Source: Cryobacterium sp. PAMC25264 (GTDB lineage: Bacteria; Actinomycetota; Actinomycetes; Actinomycetales; Microbacteriaceae). From it: 64,000 bases of DNA. Positions 15,232 to 26,581 of the stretch are shown here, piece after piece. The DNA lies in contig NZ_CP080383.1 in assembly GCF_019443325.1 (NCBI RefSeq), positions 2,232,001-2,296,000 of the forward strand. The letters are read 5' to 3'. The notes under the pieces are model-generated. The model made no database searches. It saw nothing but the letters and a program-made list of their open reading frames with translations, and had not been told where the DNA came from. Every line of letters starts with the position of its first letter. Within the stretch, counting starts at the first letter, position 1. The position numbers and the translations under genes were made by a program.

Positions 15232-15786
15232 ATGAGCGCACCGCAGATCGGAACCGTCGTGGCTGTGAGCCGGGATGACAAGCACCGGTTCAGCAAGCCC
15301 GTCGTACCGAGCATCAGCCTGCTGGCCGGGCACGGCATCGAGGGTGATTCGCACGCCGGCCCCACCACCCAGCACCGCTACCTGATTCGCACCGACCCGA
15401 CCAGGGCCAACCTCACCCAGGTGCACCTGGTGCGCTCCGAGCTGTTTGCGGAGCTCGAAGACGAGGGATTCACGGTGTCGGCCGGGCAGCTCGGCGAGAA
15501 CATCACCACCGCCGGGATCGACCTGCTGGACCTGCCGGTGGGCACCCGTCTGCACCTCGGCGCCGATGCCGTAGTGGAGGTCACCGGCATGCGCGACCCG
15601 TGCTCGATGATCGACACGTTTCAGCGGGGCCTCAAGAAGACCCTGAAGACGACGGATGCGTCGGGCCGGATCCTGCGCAGGGCCGGCATCATGGGCATCG
15701 TCGTGGCGGACGGCACCGTGGCCCCTGGCGACGAGCTGCGGGTGGAACTGCCCGCCGGCGAGCACGTTCCCCTGGGCGTGGTCTAG
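15232..15786 (+). CDS. MOSC domain-containing protein
   Basis: A 184-residue single MOSC domain (molybdenum cofactor sulfurase C-terminal), related to YiiM. Visible motifs: GTVVAVSRDD at the start, GIEGDSHAG, QLGENITTAGIDL and the conserved Cys in TGMRDPCSMID. Such proteins bind Mo cofactor and either carry sulfur or reduce N-hydroxylated compounds. ATG 15232 (MSAPQIGTVV) is preferred over the open frame from 15181, because AGGATGG lies just upstream and the extra residues are not conserved-looking. Confidence 0.9.
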   Translation: MSAPQIGTVVAVSRDDKHRFSKPVVPSISLLAGHGIEGDSHAGPTTQHRYLIRTDPTRANLTQVHLVRSELFAELEDEGFTVSAGQLGENITTAGIDLLDLPVGTRLHLGADAVVEVTGMRDPCSMIDTFQRGLKKTLKTTDASGRILRRAGIMGIVVADGTVAPGDELRVELPAGEHVPLGVV

Positions 15787-15882
15787 CCCCGCACGTCGCT
15801 CAGCGGGTGACGTGCGCGCATGTCGCGCCCCCGTCGCCGGTCGAGCCTGTCGAAACCCGGCGGGGCCGGTCGAGAATTCGGC

Positions 15883-16749
15883 TTAGAGCTCTTCGGTGGG
15901 GTGGAACCACGGCGGGTAGACGGCGACCTTGGGCTTGTGGCTGGCCGCGGCGAGGATCGGCTTGACCGCATCCCGCACCCGGTCGTTGGCGACGCCGATG
16001 AGGGTGATCAAACCGAACGGCACCTCGCCGGGAACCAGCAGTTCGGCCTTGAGGATCGCGTCGGAGTCCAGGTCGGCGCGCAGCGTGCGCAGCAGGCGGT
16101 CGGCGCTGTCGGCCGTGGCGCCGAAGCGGGTGCTCGCGAAGGCGGCATCGCCATCCGTCACTGCGAAGTGAGTGGCCGTAGGGTCGGCGGCCGTGGCGAT
16201 CTGCTGGTCGAGCACCTTCTTGACCGTGGAGACCAGGATCACGAAGTCGAAGGCCGCGGCGTCGTGCGCGTCCTCGGAGAGGCGGGGGTCGAGCGACTGG
16301 GCGCGGATGTTCTCCCAGACCAGGGCGTTCGGCGACAGGAAGAACGGCACGTGACCGGCGACGGCAGGGCTGTCGGGTCCGGCGACGAGGGCCTCGCGGC
16401 GAGCCTGGCGGTTCTCGGGCGACGAAATGTCGACGACCGGACGCTCATTCCACGCCTCGCTGTTGTCGGCCAGCAGTCGGCCGGTGGCGAGGATACCGGG
16501 CAGGTTGCGGATGTGGGTGAGGTGGTAGATGCGCTGTTCGCCGACGTTGTCGTCGTGGCGCTTGGTCTTGGCGGTGCCCGTCGTGATCGGTGCCACGACG
16601 GTGCGCAGTGCGGTGGGTGCCTCAGGCGTGCGGGCGCGGCTGGCGCGCGGGGCGCGCACGGCGGGAACTGTCGATGCGACGGGGGCGGCGGGTGGAAAAC
16701 ACAGGGCGCACAGCTCCCCGTCCAGTCCGTGGATGCATTCCTCGTTCAC
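15883..16749 (-). CDS. DarT-like (DUF4433) ADP-ribosyltransferase without adjacent DarG
   Basis: A 288-residue protein whose C-terminal two thirds match DarT, the ADP-ribosyltransferase that modifies thymidine in single-stranded DNA. The NAD-binding block YHLTHIRNLPGILATGRLLA (His76, His79, Arg81) and the catalytic-Glu block LKAELLVPGEVP (Glu236) are both intact, as is the PFFLSPNALVWENI segment. The first ~60 residues carry a short Cys/His motif (C-x-H ... C-x-x-C within residues 5-17) and a basic Ala/Pro/Arg linker, which classic DarT toxins lack. No macrodomain antitoxin DarG lies next door: the flanks are MOSC and a lysR gene. Either the antidote is elsewhere or this is a housekeeping or defence variant. 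Confidence 0.8.
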   Translation of the reverse strand: MNEECIHGLDGELCALCFPPAAPVASTVPAVRAPRASRARTPEAPTALRTVVAPITTGTAKTKRHDDNVGEQRIYHLTHIRNLPGILATGRLLADNSEAWNERPVVDISSPENRQARREALVAGPDSPAVAGHVPFFLSPNALVWENIRAQSLDPRLSEDAHDAAAFDFVILVSTVKKVLDQQIATAADPTATHFAVTDGDAAFASTRFGATADSADRLLRTLRADLDSDAILKAELLVPGEVPFGLITLIGVANDRVRDAVKPILAAASHKPKVAVYPPWFHPTEEL

Positions 16750-16903
16750 AACTCAACCTCTCGTGTGCGCGGGCTCGCTGCGCGTCGGGATCGACGGGAG
16801 CATGCCTACCTATCTAAGTTACGGTCATTTCGAGCTCACCGGTGACACAACCGGCACTATCCGGGCCGAACAGCGACAATCCGGACCCAATCGGGTCGTG
16901 ACC

Positions 16904-17784
16904 TCAGCCCAGAATGAGGCCATGCACGTCGCGCAACAACGCGACGGCAGCAGGATTACTCGGTTGTGGTGCTCGGGATACGAGCGCGAGCTCCCGATGC
17001 GGCACGGGCCCCGCGATCCGAATGCTGGCCAGGTCGGTGCCCCGAGCGACCGGTGCCGGGATGATGGCGATTCCGAGTCCGGAACGAACTAGCGAAATGA
17101 GCAGGTCGAGTTGGGTGACCGAGAGCGTGATGTAGCGCTTGAGGTGTGCCTGCTCACAGAAGTGCTCAACAACCTTCTGCAAACCGCTCCCCGCCTGGAA
17201 GTCGACGAAGGGCTCCTTCCCAGATCCGACAGGGAAACCTGCTCCTGTCGGGCGAGGGGATGGTCGCGGGGCGCGATGATGACAAGCTCTTCATCCCAGG
17301 TCGCGAGCATGGCGATGGCTTCGGGCAGTTTGCTGTGATCGCGAGCGATGTACGCGATGTCGAGTTCCCCGGTGATCACGTCCTCGAGGAGTTCGTCCAC
17401 TGTAGCCTCGCGCAGGGCGATCTCCACGTCGGGATGCGTCTGATGAAATCTACTGAGGCTCAGTGGCAGGTCCACCCAGCTGAGCATCTGGATGGTTCCC
17501 ACTGCCAAGCGGCCTCGGAGAACGCCGGTGACGGCCGCCACGGCCTCTTTGGCCGCGTGTATTTCCCGCAGGATGCGCTGCGCCACCGGCAGCAGTGCCC
17601 ATCCGGCCGAGGTAAGGGCCACCGTGCGGGTGGTCCGGTCGAACAACGGGGCACCGAGTTCATGTTCCAGCTTGCTGACGGAGCTGCTCAGCGACGACTG
17701 CACTACAGACATTTCGTGGGCCGCGCGGGTGAAGCTCAGGTGTTTGGCGACCGCGACGAAGTGCTCAAGTTGGCGTAACTCCAT
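16904..17784 (-). pseudogene. LysR-family regulator of the carbamoyl operon, one frameshift
   Basis: LysR-type regulator of ~293 residues after repair. Start ATG 17784 (MELRQLEHFVAVAKHLSF) has AAGGAA upstream. The N-terminal winged helix (SFTRAAHEMSVVQSSLSSSV) and most of the effector domain are in one frame. Near 17213-17222 the frame breaks and continues as EPFVDFQAGSGLQKVVEHF to the stop at 16904, matching the normal second effector subdomain (ISLVRSGLGIAIIPAPVA). Adding one base to the CCC run (giving LGKEPFVDF) repairs it. It diverges from the isochorismatase-allHFG-arcC operon with ~200 bases between, the classic arrangement for a LysR activator. Probably functional, with a sequencing error. 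Confidence 0.83.
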
Positions 17785-17850
17785 GGTTTTCCTTCGTACG
17801 TTATTCATCGAGCATGTCGATTACAGTCTTCTCTTTTACCTGTTGGACAG

Positions 17851-17861
17851 ATTAGCCTAAT
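17851..17861. promoter_or_regulatory. Palindrome candidate for LysR binding
   Basis: ATTAGCCTAAT is a perfect palindrome around one central base, in the AT-richer 199-base gap between the divergent lysR gene and the isochorismatase operon. LysR sites are typically interrupted dyads with T and A at the ends, which this fits. Binding is inferred from position only. Confidence 0.45.
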
Positions 17862-17983
17862 TCGGCGATCATGGTTCATGACGCCCACGACGGTATGTCG
17901 CCGGCGTCACTGCATTACCCCGATAGCGGTCGACGCCACGAGCCTCGCCGCTGCCATATTTGCTAGCGCAGGAGAATTCGAAC

Positions 17984-18652
17984 ATGAGTAGCACCACCAT
18001 CGCCGCCGAGCCGTTTGACCTCGATTTGGACGTCTCGACTACGGCGCTCATCATCATCGACATGCAGCGGGATTTCCTGCAGCCGCACGGCTTCGGGGAG
18101 CTGCTGGGCAATGACGTGTCCTTGCTGCGCTCGGCAATCGAGCCCACGCGCACGGTACTCGATGCAGCGCGTGCCGCCGACATGCTCGTCGTGCACACCC
18201 GCGAGGGCCACCGACCCGACCTCTCCGACTGCCCACCCGCGAAGCTCAACCGGGGCGGCAAGACCTTCATCGGTACGGAAGGTCCGATGGGGCGCATCCT
18301 GGTTCGAGGAGAAGAAGGTCACGACATCATTCCCGAGCTCTACCCCATCGAGGGTGAGCCGGTCATCGACAAGCCCGGAAAGGGCGCTTTCTTCGAAACC
18401 GACCTGCACATCATCCTGCAGAACCGCGGAATCAAGACGCTCATCGTGTGCGGTGTGACCACAGAGGTCTGCGTGCAGTCCACTGTGCGCGAAGGCAATG
18501 ACCGCGGTTACGAGTGCGTCGTGCTCGAAGACTGTGTCGGCTCCTACTTCCCGGAGTTCCAGGCCGCCGGTCTCGAAATGATCAAAGCGCAGGGCGGCAT
18601 CTTGGGCTGGGTCTCCAGCTCGCAGCAGGCGATCGAGGCTATCGCCTCCTAA
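17984..18652 (+). CDS. Isochorismatase-like cysteine amidohydrolase (biuret-hydrolase-like)
   Basis: A 222-residue cysteine hydrolase of the isochorismatase-like family, with the expected catalytic triad: Asp26 (IIIDMQRDF), Lys133 (KPGKGAFF) and Cys163 (CGVTTEVCVQST). The overall shape, including PAKLNRGGK, GRILVRGEEGHDI and the ~220-residue length, resembles biuret hydrolases and ureidoacrylate amidohydrolases (RutB), which release ammonia or carbamate from ureide-type amides. ATG 17984 has AGGAG nine bases upstream. It is the first gene of a seven-gene operon: its TAA overlaps the next ATG (TAATG). In this context it most likely acts on, or produces, the carbamoyl compound handled by the carbamoyltransferase encoded next. 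Exact substrate unproved. Confidence 0.85.
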   Translation: MSSTTIAAEPFDLDLDVSTTALIIIDMQRDFLQPHGFGELLGNDVSLLRSAIEPTRTVLDAARAADMLVVHTREGHRPDLSDCPPAKLNRGGKTFIGTEGPMGRILVRGEEGHDIIPELYPIEGEPVIDKPGKGAFFETDLHIILQNRGIKTLIVCGVTTEVCVQSTVREGNDRGYECVVLEDCVGSYFPEFQAAGLEMIKAQGGILGWVSSSQQAIEAIAS

Positions 18653-19548
18653 TGACCACCCGCTGGGCGGCCTCGGCATCAACCGACCGCGCAGTGTCGA
18701 AGGCTCATCTGGTGCCGTCGTTCGATTGTGACGGCACCATCCACAGTGTCTTCGCCACGTCCTGCAACATCGCCGTCGGGGATGTGCTCGTCACAGTGCA
18801 CGACGCACAGAAACAGCACACTCCCACCTCGGTGCGGGTTGCTACCGTCGGGGACACGTTGTGGACTCCGATCGTGCGCGTGGGCGACCGGGCCAGTTTT
18901 CGATCGGGGTGGCTGTCTTTCGGCAAACACCTTCTGGACCTGCGCCAGGTGCCCATCTGGGCACCTGGCGCCCCAGCCCGTTTCGCGCCACCAGAGGTTG
19001 TTCGCCGGCTCCTGGATGAGTTGATCCGGGTTCACGGGGCTCCCCCGTCCCGCAGCTCGTCGGCACTGACGTTCACTCTCGCTCGCGATGTGACCGCCCT
19101 CCGCGGCATCGTCACGGCCGGGACCGCCTCCGATTCGCGAACCGACGACCTCGACGTGGTTATCGCACGGCTGATCGGCGCCGGCGAAGGGCTCACCCCC
19201 ACCGGTGATGATGTGCTCGTCGGGCTCCTGGCCGGGCTTACTCGCGGCGGCCAGACGGCCAAGGCAACGGCCGTCGTCTCCCGCATTGCCGACAGCGTCC
19301 TCCGTAACACCCACCGCACCACAGATATCAGCGCGCACTACCTCCGACTCGCAACGCGGGGCTCCTTCAGCGAACCCCTCACAAATCTGGTCGATTCCGT
19401 CTTCACCGGTTCCTCGGTTGACGACGTGCACGCCCGCACCCGCGAGGTGTTGAGCGTTGGAGCTACTTCCGGCGCCGACGCTCTCCTGGGTGTGCTTGTC
19501 GGTGTGGAAGCCGCACTCGATTTCTCCGATAGTAAGAAGGCCGTATGA
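18652..19548 (+). CDS. allH: DUF2877 protein, AllH-like subunit of oxamate/oxalurate carbamoyltransferase
   Basis: A 298-residue DUF2877 protein with the family signature GAGEGLTPTGDDVLVGLLAGL (about residues 172-192) and the closing RTTDISAHYLRLATRG. In E. coli the homolog YlbF (AllH) works with FdrA (AllF) and YlbE (AllG) as the oxamic transcarbamylase that ends anaerobic allantoin use. All three homologs are present here in the order H-F-G. ATG 18652 overlaps the upstream TAA, and the stop overlaps the next start (ATGA), so translation is coupled. Subunit role is inferred from the family and the conserved gene set. Confidence 0.85.
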   Translation: MTTRWAASASTDRAVSKAHLVPSFDCDGTIHSVFATSCNIAVGDVLVTVHDAQKQHTPTSVRVATVGDTLWTPIVRVGDRASFRSGWLSFGKHLLDLRQVPIWAPGAPARFAPPEVVRRLLDELIRVHGAPPSRSSSALTFTLARDVTALRGIVTAGTASDSRTDDLDVVIARLIGAGEGLTPTGDDVLVGLLAGLTRGGQTAKATAVVSRIADSVLRNTHRTTDISAHYLRLATRGSFSEPLTNLVDSVFTGSSVDDVHARTREVLSVGATSGADALLGVLVGVEAALDFSDSKKAV

Positions 19549-21161
19549 CCACCCAACAGCACCGCGTATATGCCAACCTGTACAAGGATTCCGTCTCCCT
19601 GATGGCCGTTTCTTCTGCCCTGATGGCGGTGCCGGACATCGAGGCAGCCTCGGTTGTCATGGCAACAAACACCAACAGGGAAAACCTTCGGAATGCCGGA
19701 CTCGCCGACGTCACCGATGCCAAAGTCAACGATCTTCTCGTTGTCGTTCGCGGTGAAGCAACAGCGTGCGAGGAAGCACTCGCGCTCGCCGACAGGCTGT
19801 TGGCCGAACAGCCGGTCGATGACTCCGGCGACGGCACCGACAAGGGCCGACCCTCCACCAGCCTCCGACTCGCCGTGGCCGCTGACCCGAGCGCCAACCT
19901 GGCCTTGATTTCAGTGCCGGGCCCGTACGCCGCCGCCGAAGCTCTCAAGGCCCTCAAGCTGGGCTTGAACGCGATGATCTTCAGCGACAACATGCCCATC
20001 GAGAGCGAGGTCGAGGTCAAGCGGTATGCCACGGACCACGAGTTGCTGGTGATGGGCCCCGACTGCGGTACCGCACTGATCAACGGGATCCCGTTGGGCT
20101 TCGCCAACGTGGTTCGCCGAGGCCGTATCGGAGTCGTCGGCGCATCGGGAACGGGGATGCAGGAGATCACCTCCCGAATCCACCAGCTCGGTGCCGGCGT
20201 GTCACAGGCCATTGGAACGGGTGGCCACGATCTGTCCAGCCGGGTTGGCGGACTGTCCACCCTGCACTCACTGCGTGCCCTGGGCGCTGACGACGACACC
20301 GACGTCATCGTGTTGGTCTCCAAGCCCCCGGCGCCCGAGGTCGCCTCCGTGGTTCTGGAGGTGGCCCGCAACCTGTCCACGCCAGTGGTGGTCATGTTCG
20401 TCGGCGCCGGCGACGGCGCAGCCGTGGACGAGCAACTCCACACGGCGTCGACCCTGGCCGAGGCTGCGGATCTCGCCGTGGCCCTCCTCACCGGAACCCC
20501 CGCAGAAGCTGGTGCCACTCCGGCCGCTCAGCTCCCCCTCCCTGTGGAGTTGCAGGAGAGACTTCGCGACGCCGCAAGCCGAGTGAGCGACTCGCAACTC
20601 TCCCTTCGCGGCATCTACTCTGGTGGCACATTCTGTTACGAGGCCCAGGCGCTCAGCCAGGCGTACGGCATCTACGCCCATTCCAACACTCCGGTCGCGG
20701 GTAACCCCGTACTCGAAGACATCTGGACCAGCCGCGAACACACCATCATCGATATGGGAGACGACGACTTCACCCGCGGGCGTCCCCACCCCATGATCGA
20801 CCCGACCCTCCGCGACGAACGCCTCCTGGCGGAGGCCGAGGACCCATCCGCCGCGGTTCTGCTTTTCGACGTGGTCCTGGGATACGGCGCGGCAGACGAC
20901 CCGACCAGCCACTTGCTGGAGGTTCTTGAGCAGGCCCGATCGCTGGCCTCGGCCGCTGGGCGTTCTTTGCCTCTGATCGCACACGTCTGTGGCACTGACG
21001 AAGATCCCCAGTCCCGCAAAACCGTCGTGGCCGCCCTCGAAGCGGCCGGGGTTTTCGTCTCAGACAGCAACGCCCAAGCCGCACAGATGGCCGGCTTTCT
21101 CGTATCGCAGATCGCTGCCTCCGCAAATTCAGGCGAGCTCACCGAGCCCGGAAAGAAGTGA
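19545..21161 (+). CDS. fdrA: FdrA / AllF, acyl-CoA-synthetase-like carbamoyltransferase subunit
   Basis: A 538-residue FdrA-family protein, related to the alpha subunit of succinyl-CoA ligase: an N-terminal ACT-like half (VYANLYKDSVSLMAVSSAL), a CoA-binding-like fold with VMGPDCGTALINGIPLGFAN (about residues 170-190) and VGASGTGMQEI, and a C-terminal ligase-like half (RGIYSGGTFCYEAQ). In E. coli FdrA is the AllF subunit of oxamic transcarbamylase. Start ATG 19545 overlaps the allH stop, and its TGA overlaps the GTG of allG. It presumably forms a phosphohistidine- or carbamoyl-handling subunit; I cannot see a certain catalytic residue. Confidence 0.9.
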   Translation: MTTQQHRVYANLYKDSVSLMAVSSALMAVPDIEAASVVMATNTNRENLRNAGLADVTDAKVNDLLVVVRGEATACEEALALADRLLAEQPVDDSGDGTDKGRPSTSLRLAVAADPSANLALISVPGPYAAAEALKALKLGLNAMIFSDNMPIESEVEVKRYATDHELLVMGPDCGTALINGIPLGFANVVRRGRIGVVGASGTGMQEITSRIHQLGAGVSQAIGTGGHDLSSRVGGLSTLHSLRALGADDDTDVIVLVSKPPAPEVASVVLEVARNLSTPVVVMFVGAGDGAAVDEQLHTASTLAEAADLAVALLTGTPAEAGATPAAQLPLPVELQERLRDAASRVSDSQLSLRGIYSGGTFCYEAQALSQAYGIYAHSNTPVAGNPVLEDIWTSREHTIIDMGDDDFTRGRPHPMIDPTLRDERLLAEAEDPSAAVLLFDVVLGYGAADDPTSHLLEVLEQARSLASAAGRSLPLIAHVCGTDEDPQSRKTVVAALEAAGVFVSDSNAQAAQMAGFLVSQIAASANSGELTEPGKK

Positions 21162-22576
21162 ACGTGAAACTATTTACTGAGAACCTCAACGTGGTCAACC
21201 TCGGACTGGCCTCCTTCGGCGACAACATCACTCGGGCGGGCGGTACGTCGACGTCACTGGACTGGCGACCCCCCGCCGGCGGTGACGTCGACCTCGGAAT
21301 GGATCTGGCCCGGCTGATGGCTCATCCCGATGTGGAGCAGGCCAATGCCATCGCCTTCGATCGCTACCTGTCGGCTCAGCCCAGGCTCGTGGACGTGCAG
21401 ATCGCCCGAGAGGCCATTCCGGCCATGGGCCGGCAACGTCTGATCCTGCACGCAGGGCCCCCCATCGACTGGGCAGACATGTGCGGCCCCATGCAGGGCG
21501 CCATCATCGGTGCCATCCTCTACGAGGACTGGGCTGACACACCCGAGCAGGCCGAGAAACTGGCCGAAGACGGCCAGGTGGAGTTCGCGCCCTGCCACCA
21601 CCACGGCGCCGTGGGTCCGATGGCCGGAGTCATCAGCCCCTCAATGCCGTTATGGGTCGTGGAGAACACCGCCGGCACCAACCGGGCCTTCAGCAACTTC
21701 AACGAGGGTCTGGGCAAGGTTCTGCGCTTCGGTGCCAACAGCCCCGAGGTACTGGACCGGCTGCGCTGGATGGGCCACGAACTTTTCGAAAGCGTTCGAG
21801 CCGCCGTGCGTGCGCTCGGTGGGCTGGACCTCAAGCCGCTGATGGCGCAGGCCCTGCACATGGGTGACGAGGTGCACAACCGCAACTCGGCCGCGACCGG
21901 CCTGTTGTTCAAGCAGCTGGTGCCGGCCCTGCTGGCGGCAGATCTCCTCGCTGAGGCCCTGCGGAAGAGCGTCGAGTTCATAGCGGGGAACGACCACTTC
22001 TTCCTGAACCTGTCCATGGCCGCCAGCAAGACCATGCTGGACGCCACCGGTGTGGTGCCGCACAGCTCCATGGTGACCGCGATGTCCCGCAATGGCGTGA
22101 ACTTCGGGATCCGCCTCGCCAGCACCGGAGACCGGTGGTTCCAGGCGCCCGCCAACCCCGTTGACGGGCTGTTCTTCCCCGGCTACTCCGTCGCCGACGC
22201 TGCGGCAGACCTCGGCGACAGCGCCATCACTGAGACGGCCGGGCTGGGCGGTTTTGCCATGGCCGCCTCCCCCGCCATCGTGCAGTTCGTCGGCGGCACG
22301 CCGGCCGACGCCACCGAAAACAGCCGGCGGATGCGCTCCATCACATTGGGAACCAACCCTGTGTTCACCCTCCCCGCATTGAACTTCGGCGGCACCGCGG
22401 CCGGAATCGATGCCCGCGCCGTGATCGACACCGGAATCCTCCCGATCATCAACAGCGGTATCGCACACAAGGAGGCTGGAGTGGGCCAGATCGGCGCGGG
22501 AATCACCACGGCTCCGCTGGAGTGCTTCACCCAGGCCGTCGCCGCGCTCGCCGTCGAGCTGCAGGTTGCCCCGTGA
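21158..22576 (+). CDS. allG: DUF1116 protein, AllG-like carbamoyltransferase subunit
   Basis: A 472-residue DUF1116 protein (E. coli YlbE/AllG family). It opens KLFTENLNVVNLGLASFGDN and carries the family blocks GGTSTSLDWRPPAGGD, GPMQGAIIGAI, FAPCHHHGAVGPMAGV (a conserved His cluster), DEVHNRNSAATGLLF and VMTAMSRNG-like VTAMSRNGVNFGIR. GTG 21158 overlaps the fdrA stop; its own stop overlaps the GTG of carbamate kinase. With AllH and AllF it should transfer a carbamoyl group to phosphate. About 50 residues longer than the E. coli protein. Confidence 0.88.
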   Translation: MNVKLFTENLNVVNLGLASFGDNITRAGGTSTSLDWRPPAGGDVDLGMDLARLMAHPDVEQANAIAFDRYLSAQPRLVDVQIAREAIPAMGRQRLILHAGPPIDWADMCGPMQGAIIGAILYEDWADTPEQAEKLAEDGQVEFAPCHHHGAVGPMAGVISPSMPLWVVENTAGTNRAFSNFNEGLGKVLRFGANSPEVLDRLRWMGHELFESVRAAVRALGGLDLKPLMAQALHMGDEVHNRNSAATGLLFKQLVPALLAADLLAEALRKSVEFIAGNDHFFLNLSMAASKTMLDATGVVPHSSMVTAMSRNGVNFGIRLASTGDRWFQAPANPVDGLFFPGYSVADAAADLGDSAITETAGLGGFAMAASPAIVQFVGGTPADATENSRRMRSITLGTNPVFTLPALNFGGTAAGIDARAVIDTGILPIINSGIAHKEAGVGQIGAGITTAPLECFTQAVAALAVELQVAP

Positions 22577-23574
22577 GCGCCGGAATCGCCGTGGTCGCCT
22601 TCGGCGGGAATGCCCTGGTTCGTGACGACACCCACCAGTCGATCGCGGACCAGTACGCGACCGTCGTGGACACCGTACCGGCCATCGTCGACATGATCGC
22701 GGAAGGCTGGAACGTCGTGGTGACCCACGGAAACGGTCCGCAGGTGGGCTATATCCTGCGACGCTCCGAGCTGGCACGCGACGAGGTGTCGCCGGTACCC
22801 CTGGACTACGCCGTCGGCGACACTCAGGGCGCCATCGGTTACATGTTCAGCAAAGCCCTGCACAATGAGTTGGCCCGCCGCGGCCTCCAGCGGCCTGTGG
22901 TCTCTGTGGTCACCCAAACCGTGGTCGACAGCCAGGACCCGGCCTTCAGCCGGCCGACCAAGCCGGTCGGCGCGTTCTTCACCGAAGCCGAGGCTCGCCG
23001 TCACGAGCGCGAACTGGGCTGGACTGTCGCCCAAGATGGTTCCCGAGGCTGGCGGCGCACCGTTCCCTCGCCGCAGCCGCAGGAGATCGTCGAACTGGAG
23101 ACGATCCGCTCTCTGGCGACTTCCGGGACTCTCGTCATAGCCTCAGGAGGCGGCGGCATCCCGGTCACCCGGGCAACCGACGGCCAGCTCGCCGGTGTGG
23201 AAGCCGTCATCGACAAAGACCGCTCCTCTGCCCTGCTCGCCGTGCAGCTGAAGGCCAATCTACTGGTCATCCCCACCGGGGTGGACCAGGTCGCGATCCA
23301 CTTCGGCACGCCCCAGGAGCAGTGGCTCAGCCAGCTCTCGCCCGAACTCGCCGAGGAGTACGGCGCGGCGGGACATTTCGGGGAAGGCAGCATGCAACCC
23401 AAGGTCGAGGCAATTCTCGACTTTCTGCGGGAGCGACCCATGGCGGCCGGTCTGATCACCTCGCCCGCCTGCATCGCTGCGGCGCTCGAGCGCCGCAGCG
23501 GCACCTGGATTGAGAACGACGGCCCGCGCAATGCAGCGGCCGCAAGCCACACCACCAAGGAGAACCAGTCATGA
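22573..23574 (+). CDS. arcC: Carbamate kinase
   Basis: A 333-residue amino-acid-kinase-fold enzyme converting ADP and carbamoyl phosphate to ATP, ammonia and CO2. Visible motifs: VAFGGNALVR (residues 6-15), VTHGNGPQVGYILRR, PLDYAVGDTQGAIGY, VVSVVTQTVVD, ASGGGGIPV, VIDKDRSSALLA (nucleotide-binding) and IPTGVDQV. Start GTG 22573 overlaps the allG stop. Co-translated with the carbamoyltransferase genes, so it probably recovers ATP from the carbamoyl phosphate they make; no ornithine carbamoyltransferase or arginine deiminase is nearby, so this is not an arginine deiminase operon. Call is firm; symbol follows the family name. Confidence 0.93.
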   Translation: MSAGIAVVAFGGNALVRDDTHQSIADQYATVVDTVPAIVDMIAEGWNVVVTHGNGPQVGYILRRSELARDEVSPVPLDYAVGDTQGAIGYMFSKALHNELARRGLQRPVVSVVTQTVVDSQDPAFSRPTKPVGAFFTEAEARRHERELGWTVAQDGSRGWRRTVPSPQPQEIVELETIRSLATSGTLVIASGGGGIPVTRATDGQLAGVEAVIDKDRSSALLAVQLKANLLVIPTGVDQVAIHFGTPQEQWLSQLSPELAEEYGAAGHFGEGSMQPKVEAILDFLRERPMAAGLITSPACIAAALERRSGTWIENDGPRNAAAASHTTKENQS

Positions 23575-23969
23575 CCCAGACCACCCAACTCGCCGTGAAC
23601 GGCACCCTCATGCGCGGCCTCGTTCTCAACCCCAACCTCATCAATGTGGGTGCCACCTTCGTTCGCGAGGATGAGACAGCACCCTGCTACCGCCTGTGGA
23701 GCATCGGCGACCGGCACCCGGCCATGATCCGCACCACCGACGGAAGCGGGACCTCCGTTCTGCTCGAGATCTGGGAGATCCCACTCGCCGGTCTTGCCGA
23801 TGTACTGGCCAAGGAACCGGCCGGGCTCACCATCGGCAAGGTCCTCCTGGCCGACTCCTCCGAGGTCCTCGGCGTGGTCGGAGAACCGTTTCTCGTGGAA
23901 AACCAGCGGGAGATCACCGAGTTCGCGGGATGGCGCCCGTACGTGGACGCCCTCCCCCAGGGGAACTGA
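23571..23969 (+). CDS. Stand-alone allophanate-hydrolase C-terminal (AtzF_C/GGCT-like) domain
   Basis: A 132-residue protein matching the domain usually fused to the C-terminus of allophanate hydrolase: VNGTLMRGLVLNPNLINVGA, then TAPCYRLWSIGD, SVLLEIWEIPLAGLADVL, TIGKVLLADSSEVLGVVGE and FAGWRPYV. The fold is related to gamma-glutamylcyclotransferases. In a yeast allophanate hydrolase this domain finishes the reaction by splitting N-carboxycarbamate; in Pseudomonas AtzF it is described as mainly structural. Here the amidase half is absent and the domain is encoded alone, between carbamate kinase (ATGA overlap) and the permease. A role in handling an unstable carbamoyl or carboxy intermediate is inferred. 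Confidence 0.78.
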   Translation: MTQTTQLAVNGTLMRGLVLNPNLINVGATFVREDETAPCYRLWSIGDRHPAMIRTTDGSGTSVLLEIWEIPLAGLADVLAKEPAGLTIGKVLLADSSEVLGVVGEPFLVENQREITEFAGWRPYVDALPQGN

Positions 23970-23972
23970 GTC

Positions 23973-25238
23973 GTGTCCCTCAAGGTCGAAGCCCCCGCCG
24001 ACCGGGGTGCTGCGGCTGCCGGTGCGCCCGGCTACCGCATCGCCCTGATCCTGCTCGGGATCGTCGTCACCCCGGTCATGCTGTCCGCCTCCACCCTGGG
24101 CAGTTCACTGCCCCTCGGCAGAGCCGTTTCGGCCATCATCGTGGGCTCGGTCATTCTGCTGGTTGTCGGGGCCACGACCTTGTCCATCGGCCAACACGCG
24201 CGTCAGACGACGTACGACATCGTGCGGTTCCCGTTTGGTTCCACGGGTGCAAAGGCGATCAACGTCTTGCTGGCGGTGAGCCTGTTCGGCTGGACGGCGG
24301 TCACGGCCAACGGATTCGGAGTCGCCGTTCAGAGCCTGCTCGTCCAGCTCGTCGATGTGACGGTGCCGCTGCCCGTTCTCGTTGTCGTGGGTTGTGTCAT
24401 CTTTGTGGCCTCGACGGCGTTCGGGTTCAAGATCCTCGGCAATGTCGCGCAGTTCGCCGTACCCGTGATTGCGCTCATCCTGGCTTTCCTGGTCTACCAG
24501 GCGTTGAGCTCCGCCGACACGCTGCTGGATCCGGTCGAACCCATTCGCTGGGGCGTGGCCGTGTCATCGGTGGTCGGCACCGCCATTGTTCTGGTCGTTA
24601 CCGCGGCCGACTTCGGGAGCTTCACCCGCAACCGTCGACAGGCCATCCTGGCTGCTGTTTTCGCCTTCGGCATCGCCTATCCCTGCCTGTACATCGGCGC
24701 CGCGATCCCCAGCGCGTTCACCGGCGAGAGCACCCTCATCAATGCCATGTCCGTCATCGCTTCCAGCCTTCCGGCCATCGTGCTGCTGATGGTCGCTGCC
24801 GTCACCGCCAACGCCGGAAACATCTTCCAGGGAACGCTGGCCATCTCCACCCTGGTCACTGCGCTACGGAAGTGGCAGATCACCGTCGGGATCGGCGTGG
24901 CCGCCGCCATCGTCGGCAGCTTTGACCTCGTGGCCTGGTTGCCGAGCTTCCTGCTCTTCCTGGGAATCGCCGCTCCTCCCGTTGCCGGGATCTTCGTTGC
25001 GGACTTTTTCCTGCATCGCCGCACCGGCTACGACAACGCCGTGCTGACCAGCCAGCCCGCGATCAGACTCCAGACCTTCGCTGCCTGGTTCATCGGCTGC
25101 GTGATCGGCTACCTCACCGCTTACAACGTCTTCAGCCTCACCGGCATCTCGTCCATCGACTCGATGCTGATCAGCGCGGTGGTCTACGTGGTGGCAAGCA
25201 AGGTCATGAAGACAACACGCAACTCGATCGCGAAGTAG
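23973..25238 (+). CDS. NCS1-type cytosine/purine/ureide permease
   Basis: A 421-residue integral membrane protein with about 12 hydrophobic helices, of the nucleobase:cation symporter-1 family (CodB/cytosine-permease branch). Visible features: TLGSSLPLGRAVSAIIVGS near the first helices, GQHARQTTYDIVRFPFGSTGAK, FGWTAVTANGFGVAV and the loop DFGSFTRNRRQAI typical of CodB-like members. GTG 23973 lies three bases after the previous stop, so it is the last gene of the operon. It likely imports the nitrogen compound broken down by the enzymes upstream. Family members carry cytosine, allantoin, hydantoins or similar rings; the substrate here is unknown. Confidence 0.9.
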   Translation: MSLKVEAPADRGAAAAGAPGYRIALILLGIVVTPVMLSASTLGSSLPLGRAVSAIIVGSVILLVVGATTLSIGQHARQTTYDIVRFPFGSTGAKAINVLLAVSLFGWTAVTANGFGVAVQSLLVQLVDVTVPLPVLVVVGCVIFVASTAFGFKILGNVAQFAVPVIALILAFLVYQALSSADTLLDPVEPIRWGVAVSSVVGTAIVLVVTAADFGSFTRNRRQAILAAVFAFGIAYPCLYIGAAIPSAFTGESTLINAMSVIASSLPAIVLLMVAAVTANAGNIFQGTLAISTLVTALRKWQITVGIGVAAAIVGSFDLVAWLPSFLLFLGIAAPPVAGIFVADFFLHRRTGYDNAVLTSQPAIRLQTFAAWFIGCVIGYLTAYNVFSLTGISSIDSMLISAVVYVVASKVMKTTRNSIAK

Positions 25239-25258
25239 AGCCCGCTTCGACTTCGCCG

Positions 25259-25762
25259 CTACTCCATCGAGAAGTCGGCGAAGTCGAAGCCGGGTGACAC
25301 TAGGCAGCTCACCAGGGCGTCCTCCTCGCTCGGCACTGTGCGCTGCCAGACATCGGCGGGGATGATCACCTGGCTGCGTTCGTCGCGGAGCAGTCGGCCG
25401 CCCAGGATGGCGGTCTCCTCGGATTCCGGCTCGTCGCCGTCGCCGCCCAGTTCGAGCTCCACGGTGCCTTGGCCGTTCCAGATCCAGATCTCACTGGAGG
25501 CGACGCGGTGCCACGCGGAGAACTCCCCCGCCGGCAGCAGGAAGTGGATGAGAGTGGCCGCGGGACGAGTGCGCTCGGAGCCGTCGGTATCCGTGAGCGT
25601 CACCGGCACGGGTGACGTCCAGGTGCGCCGGTACCAGCCACCTTCCGGATGCGGCTCGAGGCCAAGCTCCACGGCGAGAACCGGGCGCACCAACCGTTCG
25701 ATGAACTCGCCGGAGGCCGTGCGTCGGGTGGCCAGGCGGGTGTCCGAAGGATTTGTTGTCAT
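25259..25762 (-). CDS. DUF985-family cupin
   Basis: A 167-residue cupin of the DUF985 family, marked by LGLEPHPEGGWYRRTW at residues ~34-49, ATLIHFLLPAGEFSAWHRV, EIWIWNGQG and the C-terminal LVSCLVSPGFDFADF. The His and Glu residues (SAWHRV, SEIW) would sit in the metal/ligand pocket of the beta-barrel. It converges on the permease gene, with 20 bases between. ATG 25762 has GGGAGAAA upstream. Function is not established for the family. Confidence 0.9.
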   Translation of the reverse strand: MTTNPSDTRLATRRTASGEFIERLVRPVLAVELGLEPHPEGGWYRRTWTSPVPVTLTDTDGSERTRPAATLIHFLLPAGEFSAWHRVASSEIWIWNGQGTVELELGGDGDEPESEETAILGGRLLRDERSQVIIPADVWQRTVPSEEDALVSCLVSPGFDFADFSME

Positions 25763-25894
25763 CGAGTTTCTCCCGAAGTAGTGGGGGGCGGAGAACGTGG
25801 TGTCACACAGACAATCTCTCTGTCTAGCAGCAGTATCGCAGCTAAGAAAAATCCCCAGCGTGGGATGACGCGGTGCCTGTGTCGCACCGTCTCT

Positions 25895-26581
25895 CTAGGA
25901 CAGCGCCTGTCGCAACCCCTCCCCCAGCCCGGCGAGCACCAGGAAGATACCCAGCACAAGCACCGTCAACACCGTGATCAGCGGCATGTTGCGCACCAGC
26001 CACTCCCGCAGCCGCACCAGGCGCCCGCGCACCACGGCGCCGCCGAACGCATAGGCGAGCACGGGCCCGAGCATCGTGACGGAGGCCAACGCGGTGAACA
26101 CCCCCACCGACAGCAGGATCCCGGTGGGATCGGTATGCGCGCCCAGGATCACCACACCGGCCGCGGCCGCCATCACCAGGTTCTTCGGCCGGAACGCCGC
26201 GTAGCCCACCCCGATCAGGGTGGCCCGGGCCGGGCTCAGCCGGTCGAGCGCCATCAGCCACCGCGGCAGCGGCACCTCCGCGCCTCGCTCGGGCCGGTCG
26301 TGCCACTGCACGATGCCCAGCACGATCAGGGCGACACCGAGCAACAGTGGCACCAGCACCTGCAACAAACGGGTGCCGGCCGCCCTGTCGTGCGGCAGCA
26401 GCGACGACAGCAGCGCCAGCAGGGTGGCGGAACAGAGCACTCCGATGAACCAGCCGATGCTGAACCCGGCCGCGGCCTTGAAGCCGTCGGGCGCAAGCAG
26501 CATCAGCAGCAGGCCTGCCAACGGCAGCGGGCTGAGCGCGATGGTCAGCGCCAGCGGCAGCAGCTGCCCCCACTCGGTCAT
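25895..26581 (-). CDS. GAP-family (LysE-like) membrane protein
   Basis: A 228-residue membrane protein with about six helices: LLPLALTIALSPLPLAGLLL first, then GFSIGWFIGVL, and GYAAFRPKNLVMAAAAGVVI, the latter carrying the RPKN motif typical of the GAP/Sap family related to LysE exporters. It begins 19 bases after the cardiolipin synthase stop, with GAGGAG before the ATG, so both are probably one transcript. The mycobacterial members help export glycolipids, which would fit a membrane-lipid operon. Specific cargo is inference. Confidence 0.8.
   Translation of the reverse strand: MTEWGQLLPLALTIALSPLPLAGLLLMLLAPDGFKAAAGFSIGWFIGVLCSATLLALLSSLLPHDRAAGTRLLQVLVPLLLGVALIVLGIVQWHDRPERGAEVPLPRWLMALDRLSPARATLIGVGYAAFRPKNLVMAAAAGVVILGAHTDPTGILLSVGVFTALASVTMLGPVLAYAFGGAVVRGRLVRLREWLVRNMPLITVLTVLVLGIFLVLAGLGEGLRQALS

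What the first reader, a model, noticed from the sequence alone, without database searches (positions are those of the whole stretch)
17984..25238. Seven-gene carbamoyl-compound catabolic operon: amidohydrolase + AllHFG + carbamate kinase + allophanate-hydrolase-type domain + NCS1 permease
Seen: every gene from 17984 to 23969 overlaps the next start (TAATG, ATGA, GTGA), and the permease follows by three bases, so seven genes form one coupled unit behind a divergent LysR. Known: FdrA/DUF1116/DUF2877 homologs in E. coli are the oxamic transcarbamylase AllFGH, feeding carbamate kinase in allantoin use. Inference: the usual allantoin enzymes are absent here and instead an isochorismatase-like (biuret-hydrolase-like) enzyme and a stand-alone allophanate-hydrolase C-terminal domain are built in, so the substrate is probably not allantoin but another ureide (biuret-, oxalurate- or hydantoin-like), imported by the NCS1 permease and broken down with ATP gain. 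I know of no description of this exact combination.
Basis: partly seen in the sequence, partly recalled or inferred. Interest (0 to 1): 0.85.

Follow-up and report, generated by a model that had tools for sequence, protein, structure and literature searches.

The report
Triuret-breakdown operon with ATP recovery
This is a mobile gene cassette that probably lets bacteria use triuret, a breakdown product of uric acid and a fertilizer impurity, as a nitrogen source while saving part of its energy as ATP; the same gene set sits in E. coli BL21 and in more than a quarter of complete E. coli genomes.

Summary
In detail: seven tightly coupled genes (17984-25238) encode an isochorismatase-like hydrolase, AllH, AllF, AllG, carbamate kinase (CK), a stand-alone allophanate-hydrolase C-domain (AH_C) and an NCS1 permease. 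With the divergent LysR (frameshifted here) they form an 8.4-kb insertion that four congeners lack at that site. The same seven genes occur in the same order in E. coli BL21, not at that site in K-12; 1542 of 5426 complete E. coli genomes have a place covering at least 80% of the E. coli set. The hydrolase fails the biuret-hydrolase model and residues. It carries the triuret-hydrolase (TrtA) signature, as do 39 of 44 full-length hydrolases in 80 related loci; 3 more differ at one residue. In two AllG lineages AllHFG-CK is paired with cyanuric acid hydrolase, which, like TrtA, makes 1-carboxybiuret. Best reading: triuret becomes 1-carboxybiuret, AllFGH phosphorolyses it (or biuret or allophanate) to carbamoyl phosphate, and CK makes ATP. 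This is inferred, not assayed. A 2025 paper noted triuret genes beside allFGHK in nitrifiers but read two pathways. AH_C's role is unsolved.

The parts
16896..25251 (.). Inserted cassette (about 8.4 kb): LysR plus the seven-gene operon
   Evidence: In four congeners homology to the window stops at 16895 and resumes at 25252-25261; one of them (L151) has only about 25 bp between the flanks, the other three about 570-585 bp. GC is 0.64-0.67 here against mostly 0.68-0.72 around it, though a few other stretches of the window are also 0.66-0.67.
16904..17808 (-). Divergent LysR regulator, split by a frameshift into 17089-17808 and 16904-17182
   Evidence: Pfam HTH_1 and LysR_substrate on the first ORF, LysR_substrate on the second
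17984..18652 (+). Isochorismatase-like cysteine hydrolase of TrtA (triuret hydrolase) type, 222 aa
   Evidence: Best solved relatives 6xix/6xj4 (262/258 bits; TrtA by PMC7948467), ahead of biuret hydrolase 6xjm (237); D26/K130/C163 triad and F37/N43/E161/Q203/I206
18652..19548 (+). AllH (PF11392, formerly DUF2877), 298 aa
19545..21161 (+). AllF/FdrA, 538 aa
   Evidence: NF004760 479 bits, cut-off 433; solved FdrA 3dmy
21158..22576 (+). AllG (PF06545, formerly DUF1116), 472 aa
   Evidence: tree
22573..23574 (+). Carbamate kinase, 333 aa
   Evidence: NF009007 (subfamily) 354.9 bits, cut-off 266; just under the arcC equivalog cut-off (353.8 against 358.25)
23571..23969 (+). Stand-alone AH_C domain protein, 132 aa
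   Evidence: PF21986 128.6 bits; solved relative 5c5z 156.8 bits; NGTLMRG motif, no His at the KlAH-492 position
23973..25238 (+). NCS1-family permease, 421 aa
   Evidence: PF02133 over cut-off; below the cytosine-permease equivalog cut-off (138.9 against 326)
25241..25293 (.). Inverted repeat (18-nt arms, 94% complementary) between the convergent ends of the permease and the next gene, possibly a shared terminator
   Evidence: I15

Best explanation
A horizontally acquired triuret-use cassette. The NCS1 permease imports the ureide (inferred). The TrtA-type hydrolase removes ammonia from triuret to give 1-carboxybiuret (shown for TrtA of Herbaspirillum, inferred here). AllFGH, whose E. coli relative phosphorolyses oxalurate to oxamate and carbamoyl phosphate, here phosphorolyses the ureide made from triuret. 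1-Carboxybiuret is favoured because it resembles oxalurate extended by one NH; biuret or allophanate are possible (inferred). Carbamate kinase turns carbamoyl phosphate plus ADP into ATP and carbamate, which falls apart to ammonia and CO2. AH_C works somewhere between the hydrolase and kinase steps, perhaps as a decarboxylase of an N-carboxy intermediate (weakly inferred). So carbamoyl groups that other bacteria hydrolyse with allophanate hydrolase are cashed in as ATP.
For: (1) Hydrolase: best solved match is TrtA; the TrtA-defining first- and second-shell residues checked are kept; in a quick tree it lies in the TrtA-side clade (SH-aLRT 98-100), apart from BiuH. (2) Of 44 full-length hydrolase ORFs in the 80 AllG loci, 39 are FNEQI, 2 FNHQI, 1 FNELI and 2 BiuH-type. 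(3) Reverse test from the hydrolase alone in 396 Actinomycetota genomes (E <= 1e-50): of 14 places besides the window, 5 of 7 TrtA-type have AllF or AllG within about 1.5 kb, 0 of 7 BiuH-type; with the genus hit 0 of 8, one-sided p = 0.007, relatedness not corrected. (4) Swap: AllHFG-CK is paired with cyanuric acid hydrolase (equivalog, 537-580 bits, cut-off 360) in an enterobacterial lineage nested inside the TrtA-paired AllG clade and in three Amphibacillus; L058 has it (435 bits) beside AllF-AllG. TrtA and AtzD share the product 1-carboxybiuret (PMC7948467, passages). (5) Fusions: CK-AH_C in 9 loci of 8 genomes, AH_C-hydrolase in 1. (6) The host has no urease alpha and no amidase joined to AH_C, only a truncated C-domain. 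(7) AllFGH+CK chemistry is experimental in E. coli (PMC11326118, abstract and passages).
Against: No assay. The characterised TrtA sits in a sister sub-clade (support 86) of most AllFGH-linked hydrolases, not among them, so specificity may differ. AH_C is absent from all 6 AtzD-paired loci and from 12 of 45 hydrolase loci, some of them cut by contig ends, so it is not obviously required after 1-carboxybiuret. The residue at the KlAH His492 position is Leu (its catalytic role is recalled, not read). Two loci have BiuH-type hydrolases near AllFGH (L040, L053). Some TrtA/AllFGH loci also hold a full allophanate hydrolase (L054, L066). Two Actinomycetota TrtA-type places have an AtzF-like amidase instead of AllFGH (L130, L131). 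In two of the five positive places (L127, L128) only an AllG-like frame was found, and L127 also has a full AtzF. The own-genome search did not cover urea carboxylase, and the four amidases were not identified further. PMC7558591 cites the c4763 structure paper as showing a role in urea breakdown; I could not read that paper.
Confidence: 0.62

Rival explanations
1. Oxalurate route: AllFGH keeps its known substrate, and the hydrolase makes oxalurate from an amide such as oxaluramide; the operon serves oxidised purine ureides.
For: AllFGH of E. coli is oxamic transcarbamylase (PMC11326118); the 2025 nitrifier paper reads allFGHK beside triuret genes as oxalurate degradation (PMC12625717).
Against: No allantoin genes in the operon. 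[quoted passage not shown] The cyanuric-acid-hydrolase pairing is hard to explain with oxalurate.
Confidence: 0.13
2. Decarboxylate first: AH_C turns 1-carboxybiuret into biuret, AllFGH splits biuret into urea and carbamoyl phosphate, and urea is lost. (A branch of the best explanation, held apart because it changes the ATP and nitrogen yield.)
For: AH_C is fused to the hydrolase in L048 and to CK in nine loci; the AH C-domain is believed to be a decarboxylase (recalled); no urease alpha was found in the host.
Against: AH_C is absent where AtzD supplies the same carboxybiuret; the KlAH His492 position is Leu.
Confidence: 0.2
3. Ordinary hydrolytic biuret/triuret or urea-related pathway with AllFGH as an unrelated passenger.
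For: Hydrolase family known for biuret/triuret; some TrtA-type loci have an AtzF-type amidase; PMC7558591 cites a urea-breakdown role for c4763.
Against: Not BiuH by cut-off or residues; no AtzF (amidase + AH_C) or urease alpha found in this genome; a stand-alone AH_C lacks the amidase domain; the coupled gene set recurs across distant bacteria.
Confidence: 0.08
4. Pyrimidine-type ureide (ureidomalonate or similar) as substrate, the hydrolase acting like RutB.
For: NCS1 permease related to cytosine permease; ureidomalonate is close in shape to carboxybiuret; other AllFG loci sit with xanthine-dehydrogenase-like and cyclase genes.
Against: RutB score 116.8 against cut-off 378; 10 of the 11 loci with the xanthine-dehydrogenase-like gene lack the TrtA-type hydrolase (L043 has both).
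Confidence: 0.05

Closest known systems
E. coli allFGHK (oxamic transcarbamylase plus catabolic carbamate kinase; PMC11326118)
   Same: Same three subunits and a carbamate kinase in one operon
   Different: Sits with allantoin genes; here with a TrtA-type hydrolase, AH_C and NCS1. YlbE-type AllG is about 46% identical to the window's and served as the outgroup, on a long branch
TrtA-BiuH-AtzF triuret pathway (Herbaspirillum, Rhizobium; PMC7948467)
   Same: TrtA-type hydrolase that would make 1-carboxybiuret
   Different: No BiuH and no AtzF in this operon; AllFGH + CK in their place
E. coli 7-gene island between ysgA and metE (BL21)
   Same: Same seven families in the same order; hydrolase 71% and AH_C 62% identical (strain DETEC-S792)
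   Different: LysR downstream and annotated as intact; I found no description of its function (searches), apart from the cited urea role of c4763
Comammox/AOA biuH-trtA-allFGHK neighbourhoods (PMC12625717)
   Same: Co-location of triuret/biuret and allFGHK genes, in some cases codB
   Different: Authors propose separate triuret and oxalurate pathways; atzF present in comammox; no stand-alone AH_C in the passages read
Enterobacterial AtzD-NCS2-AllHFG-CK operon (plasmid L004, contig L036)
   Same: AllG 70-71% identical to the window's, CK, a LysR gene nearby
   Different: Cyanuric acid hydrolase, a further membrane protein and an NCS2 permease; no hydrolase, AH_C or NCS1 found in the stretch

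Membership tests
Triuret hydrolase TrtA | Asp-Lys-Cys triad of isochorismatase-like hydrolases | tested here: met
   D26, K130, C163
Triuret hydrolase TrtA | Second-shell residues F35, N41, E160, Q202, I205 (TrtA numbering) | tested here: met
   F37, N43, E161, Q203, I206
Triuret hydrolase TrtA | Groups with characterised TrtA rather than BiuH in a tree | tested here: met
   Clade of 52 rows at 100 and 50 rows at 98, TrtA 6xix inside; but TrtA itself lies in a sister sub-clade (quick tree)
Triuret hydrolase TrtA | Hydrolyses triuret far better than biuret | not testable with these tools
   needs assay
Biuret hydrolase BiuH | NF050097 equivalog cut-off 370 bits | tested here: not met
   268.8 bits; a BiuH-type control (L053) scores 406.7
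Biuret hydrolase BiuH | Y/Y/D/Q/V at the discriminating positions | tested here: not met
   F/N/E/Q/I
Oxamic transcarbamylase AllFGH | AllF, AllG and AllH all present and linked to a carbamate kinase | tested here: met
Oxamic transcarbamylase AllFGH | Allantoin-pathway genes beside it | tested here: not met
   none among the seven genes; compare L093
Oxamic transcarbamylase AllFGH | Oxalurate/oxamate activity | not testable with these tools
   needs assay
Allophanate hydrolase AtzF | Amidase-signature domain joined to AH_C | tested here: not met
   132 aa, AH_C only
Allophanate hydrolase AtzF | His at the KlAH-492 position of the C-domain (role recalled) | tested here: not met
   Leu13; NGTLMRG where AtzF C-domains have GAHxSG

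The most novel reading that the evidence does not exclude
A previously unrecognised phosphorolytic pathway for polyureides. AllFGH of this clade is a carboxybiuret (or biuret/allophanate) transcarbamylase, so triuret, and in sister operons cyanuric acid, is broken down with capture of carbamoyl groups as ATP. The route is spread by insertion and on plasmids through Actinomycetota, Pseudomonadota, Bacillota, Chloroflexi and others, including more than a quarter of complete E. coli genomes, and a stand-alone AH_C with its own active-site motif serves it.
Probability: 0.5. Interest if true: 0.82.

Novelty: new variant of a known kind. Interest (0 to 1): 0.68.

Why it matters
If true, it gives a substrate and a mechanism to an operon present in a very common protein-expression host (E. 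coli BL21) and, at 80% coverage or more, in 1542 of 5426 complete E. coli genomes. It places the stand-alone AH_C proteins in a pathway, and makes a 'waste' nitrogen compound of urine and fertilizer an energy source. It shows that the new AllFGH transcarbamylase family is used beyond allantoin, and that cyanuric acid breakdown may exist in an ATP-yielding form on enterobacterial plasmids. It can be tested with two laboratory strains.

Tried and rejected
Considered and set aside: biuret hydrolase (fails cut-off and residues); RutB/pyrimidine reading (weak score); reading AH_C as a broken AtzF (the 20 stand-alone and 9 CK-fused domains next to AllG share a motif that the 7 AtzF C-domains lack; one search found 3014 proteins of 0.55-1.75 times its length, 120 listed, so stand-alone AH_C is common); Rfam elements in 15500-26000 (none); promoter scan (2 found, 1.0 expected). 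Two paper look-ups needed for the AH C-domain and c4763 were not held, so the role of KlAH His492 and the identity of 5c5z with c4763 rest on recall. The six same-order actinobacterial AllG relatives were checked for context in 5 cases (L102-L106; G052 not): none has the TrtA-type hydrolase or AH_C by my models. The first AllG alignment (A1) held two rows read on the wrong strand and was replaced by A4. In the Mycobacterium-type loci no AllH was found by my models, and the one upstream 279-aa ORF tested had no Pfam hit; left open.
Full report
WHAT IS THERE. The seven genes lie at 17984-25238 on the + strand, as reported, with one- to four-base overlaps at five junctions and a 3-base gap before the permease. 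Pfam and NCBIfam identify an isochorismatase-like hydrolase, AllH, AllF/FdrA, AllG, carbamate kinase, a stand-alone allophanate-hydrolase C-domain and an NCS1 permease. The divergent LysR is split into two frames. No Rfam family reached its gathering score in 15500-26000.

IT IS AN INSERTED CASSETTE. The genome is one 4.06-Mb contig; names of near relatives of the AH_C protein point to Cryobacterium. AllG is absent from all 36 other same-genus genomes searched. Of 57 same-genus genomes including the window's own, only one other has a hydrolase hit at E <= 1e-60; it is 50% identical and BiuH-type. AH_C proteins 91-92% identical to the window's are nevertheless named from two Cryobacterium, so some congeners outside my sample probably have the cassette. 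A gene just right of the operon has homologues in 6 other of 41 genus genomes, seven places; in five of these seven the gene just left of the cassette lies within the fetched 1.5 kb. Aligning four of the five to the window, homology stops at 16895 in all four and resumes at 25252-25261. One relative has about 25 bp in between; the other three have about 570-585 bp. GC dips across the segment, though not uniquely in the window. So LysR plus operon came in, or replaced a short stretch, as one unit; loss in the relatives is less likely but not excluded.

THE SAME UNIT ELSEWHERE. E. coli DETEC-S792 and BL21(DE3) have hydrolase-AllH-FdrA-AllG-CK-AH_C-permease-LysR in this order. K-12 MG1655 has metE next to ysgA, with nothing between. 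With the E. coli unit as query, 1542 of 5426 complete genomes have a place covering at least 80%; 127 of 1616 places are on plasmids. By my own profile models, 77 of 80 have AllF, 50 AllH, 56 CK, 45 the hydrolase, 38 AH_C in some form, 15 NCS1 and 5 AtzD; 12 have all seven families. Many loci are cut by contig ends; among the 49 with at least 6 kb on both sides, 33 have the hydrolase and 36 CK.

THE HYDROLASE IS OF THE TRIURET TYPE. TrtA and BiuH differ in second-shell residues (PMC7948467: results part 1 and the section on Q202 read; passages). The window, E. coli and nearly all AllFGH-linked enzymes carry the TrtA set: 39 FNEQI, 2 FNHQI and 1 FNELI of 44 full-length ORFs in L013-L092, against 2 BiuH-type; L015, L020 and L064 were cut short and are not counted. 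In a quick tree they fall with TrtA and away from BiuH (support 98-100), although TrtA itself belongs to a sister sub-clade. Starting instead from the hydrolase in 396 Actinomycetota genomes (E <= 1e-50; in many genomes only 7 first-look candidates were scored) gave 14 places besides the window: 7 TrtA-type, 5 of them beside AllF or AllG; 7 BiuH-type (two of these with one odd residue), none. With up to 18 kb of context (15 regions), the two other TrtA-type places have an AtzF-like amidase. In L127 and L128 only an AllG-like frame is seen, with a full AtzF in L127. Of the 8 BiuH-type places, 3 have an AtzF-like amidase, one has AtzD, one an AH_C, and 3 none of my models besides the hydrolase. 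Relatedness among rows was not corrected for.

THE SWAP. In L004 (plasmid) and L036, AllHFG-CK follows a cyanuric acid hydrolase and an NCS2 permease, with no TrtA-type hydrolase and no AH_C in the stretch. The L004 enzyme passes the cyanuric-acid-hydrolase equivalog at 580 bits; L036 was not scanned but scores the same against it. Their AllG is nested inside a TrtA-paired clade (16 rows, support 99). 47 of 72,556 plasmid records hold at least 80% of the L004 unit. Three Amphibacillus have AtzD with AllHFG-CK in another part of the tree, whose deep forks are weak; one of them also has a TrtA-type hydrolase. L058 adds AtzD beside AllF-AllG, without CK. TrtA and AtzD make the same product, 1-carboxybiuret (PMC7948467). 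The simplest common substrate for AllFGH is therefore that compound or what it becomes (biuret, allophanate). That is my inference.

AH_C. It is fused behind carbamate kinase in nine loci of eight genomes (Mycobacterium, Mycolicibacterium, and Acidobacteria, Rhodobacterales and Hyphomicrobiales MAGs) and in front of the hydrolase in one Deltaproteobacteria MAG, so it belongs to this pathway. It forms a group with NGTLMRG and HPGM/HPAM motifs; allophanate-hydrolase C-domains have GAHxSGLPL instead, and the residue matching KlAH His492 is Leu. Since AtzD-paired loci lack it, its step is unclear.

THE HOST. No urease alpha subunit was found. There are four amidase-family hits, none joined to AH_C. 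The second AH_C in the genome is a truncated AtzF-type fragment near an integrase-domain ORF. So the hydrolytic end of the classical pathway was not found; urea carboxylase was not searched for.

WHAT IS KNOWN. AllFGH is oxamic transcarbamylase in E. coli (PMC11326118; abstract and passages). Co-location of trtA/biuH with allFGHK in comammox and AOA was reported and read as triuret plus oxalurate degradation (PMC12625717; abstract, passages and part 1 of 2 of one section). PMC7558591 (passages) cites the c4763 structure paper for a role in urea breakdown; I could not read that source. Full-text searches for triuret with carbamate kinase, for cyanuric acid hydrolase with carbamate kinase, and for at least three of allophanate, carbamoyl phosphate, phosphorolysis and biuret each returned only PMC12625717. 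The library holds open-licence papers only.

VERDICT. A real, mobile, widely conserved operon; probable function triuret breakdown with phosphorolytic ATP gain. Shown here: gene content, order, signatures, fusions, swaps, presence/absence at the site. Inferred: every substrate.

Noticed in passing
window 16904-17808 (-): LysR regulator in two frames (17089-17808 and 16904-17182): frameshift or base error in an otherwise complete genome
   Followed up: partly
L101 5398-5781 (own genome C1:3811499): Truncated AtzF-type C-domain near an integrase-domain ORF: probable remnant of an allophanate hydrolase
   Followed up: partly
L004, L036, L069, L075, L079: Cyanuric acid hydrolase + 411-422-aa membrane protein + NCS2 permease + AllHFG + CK in Enterobacterales and Amphibacillus; 36 of 50 plasmid records with a match to the L004 unit are predicted conjugative
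   Followed up: partly
L068, L073, L076, L078, L081, L083, L086, L088, L090, L091 (and L043): AllF-AllG with xanthine-dehydrogenase-like genes, often a PF04199 cyclase, some with carboxyltransferase and OAD-beta genes (one member of each cluster scanned): possibly a phosphorolytic barbiturate/ureidomalonate route
   Followed up: no
18 loci, among them L037, L039, L043, L044, L050, L054, L063, L066, L071, L079, L080, L084: A roughly 520-aa protein with 9-12 predicted membrane segments in the five full-length copies looked at, sometimes in tandem, often where the NCS1 permease would be; the one tested had no Pfam or NCBIfam hit
   Followed up: partly
L014, L017, L018, L023, L025, L030, L031, L045, L067: Carbamate kinase and AH_C fused in one ORF
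   Followed up: yes
L123 (BL21) and L124 (MG1655): The 7-gene island is present in BL21 between ysgA and metE and absent there in K-12: a ready laboratory comparison
   Followed up: yes
window 25241-25293: 18-nt inverted repeat between convergent genes at the right edge of the cassette
   Followed up: no
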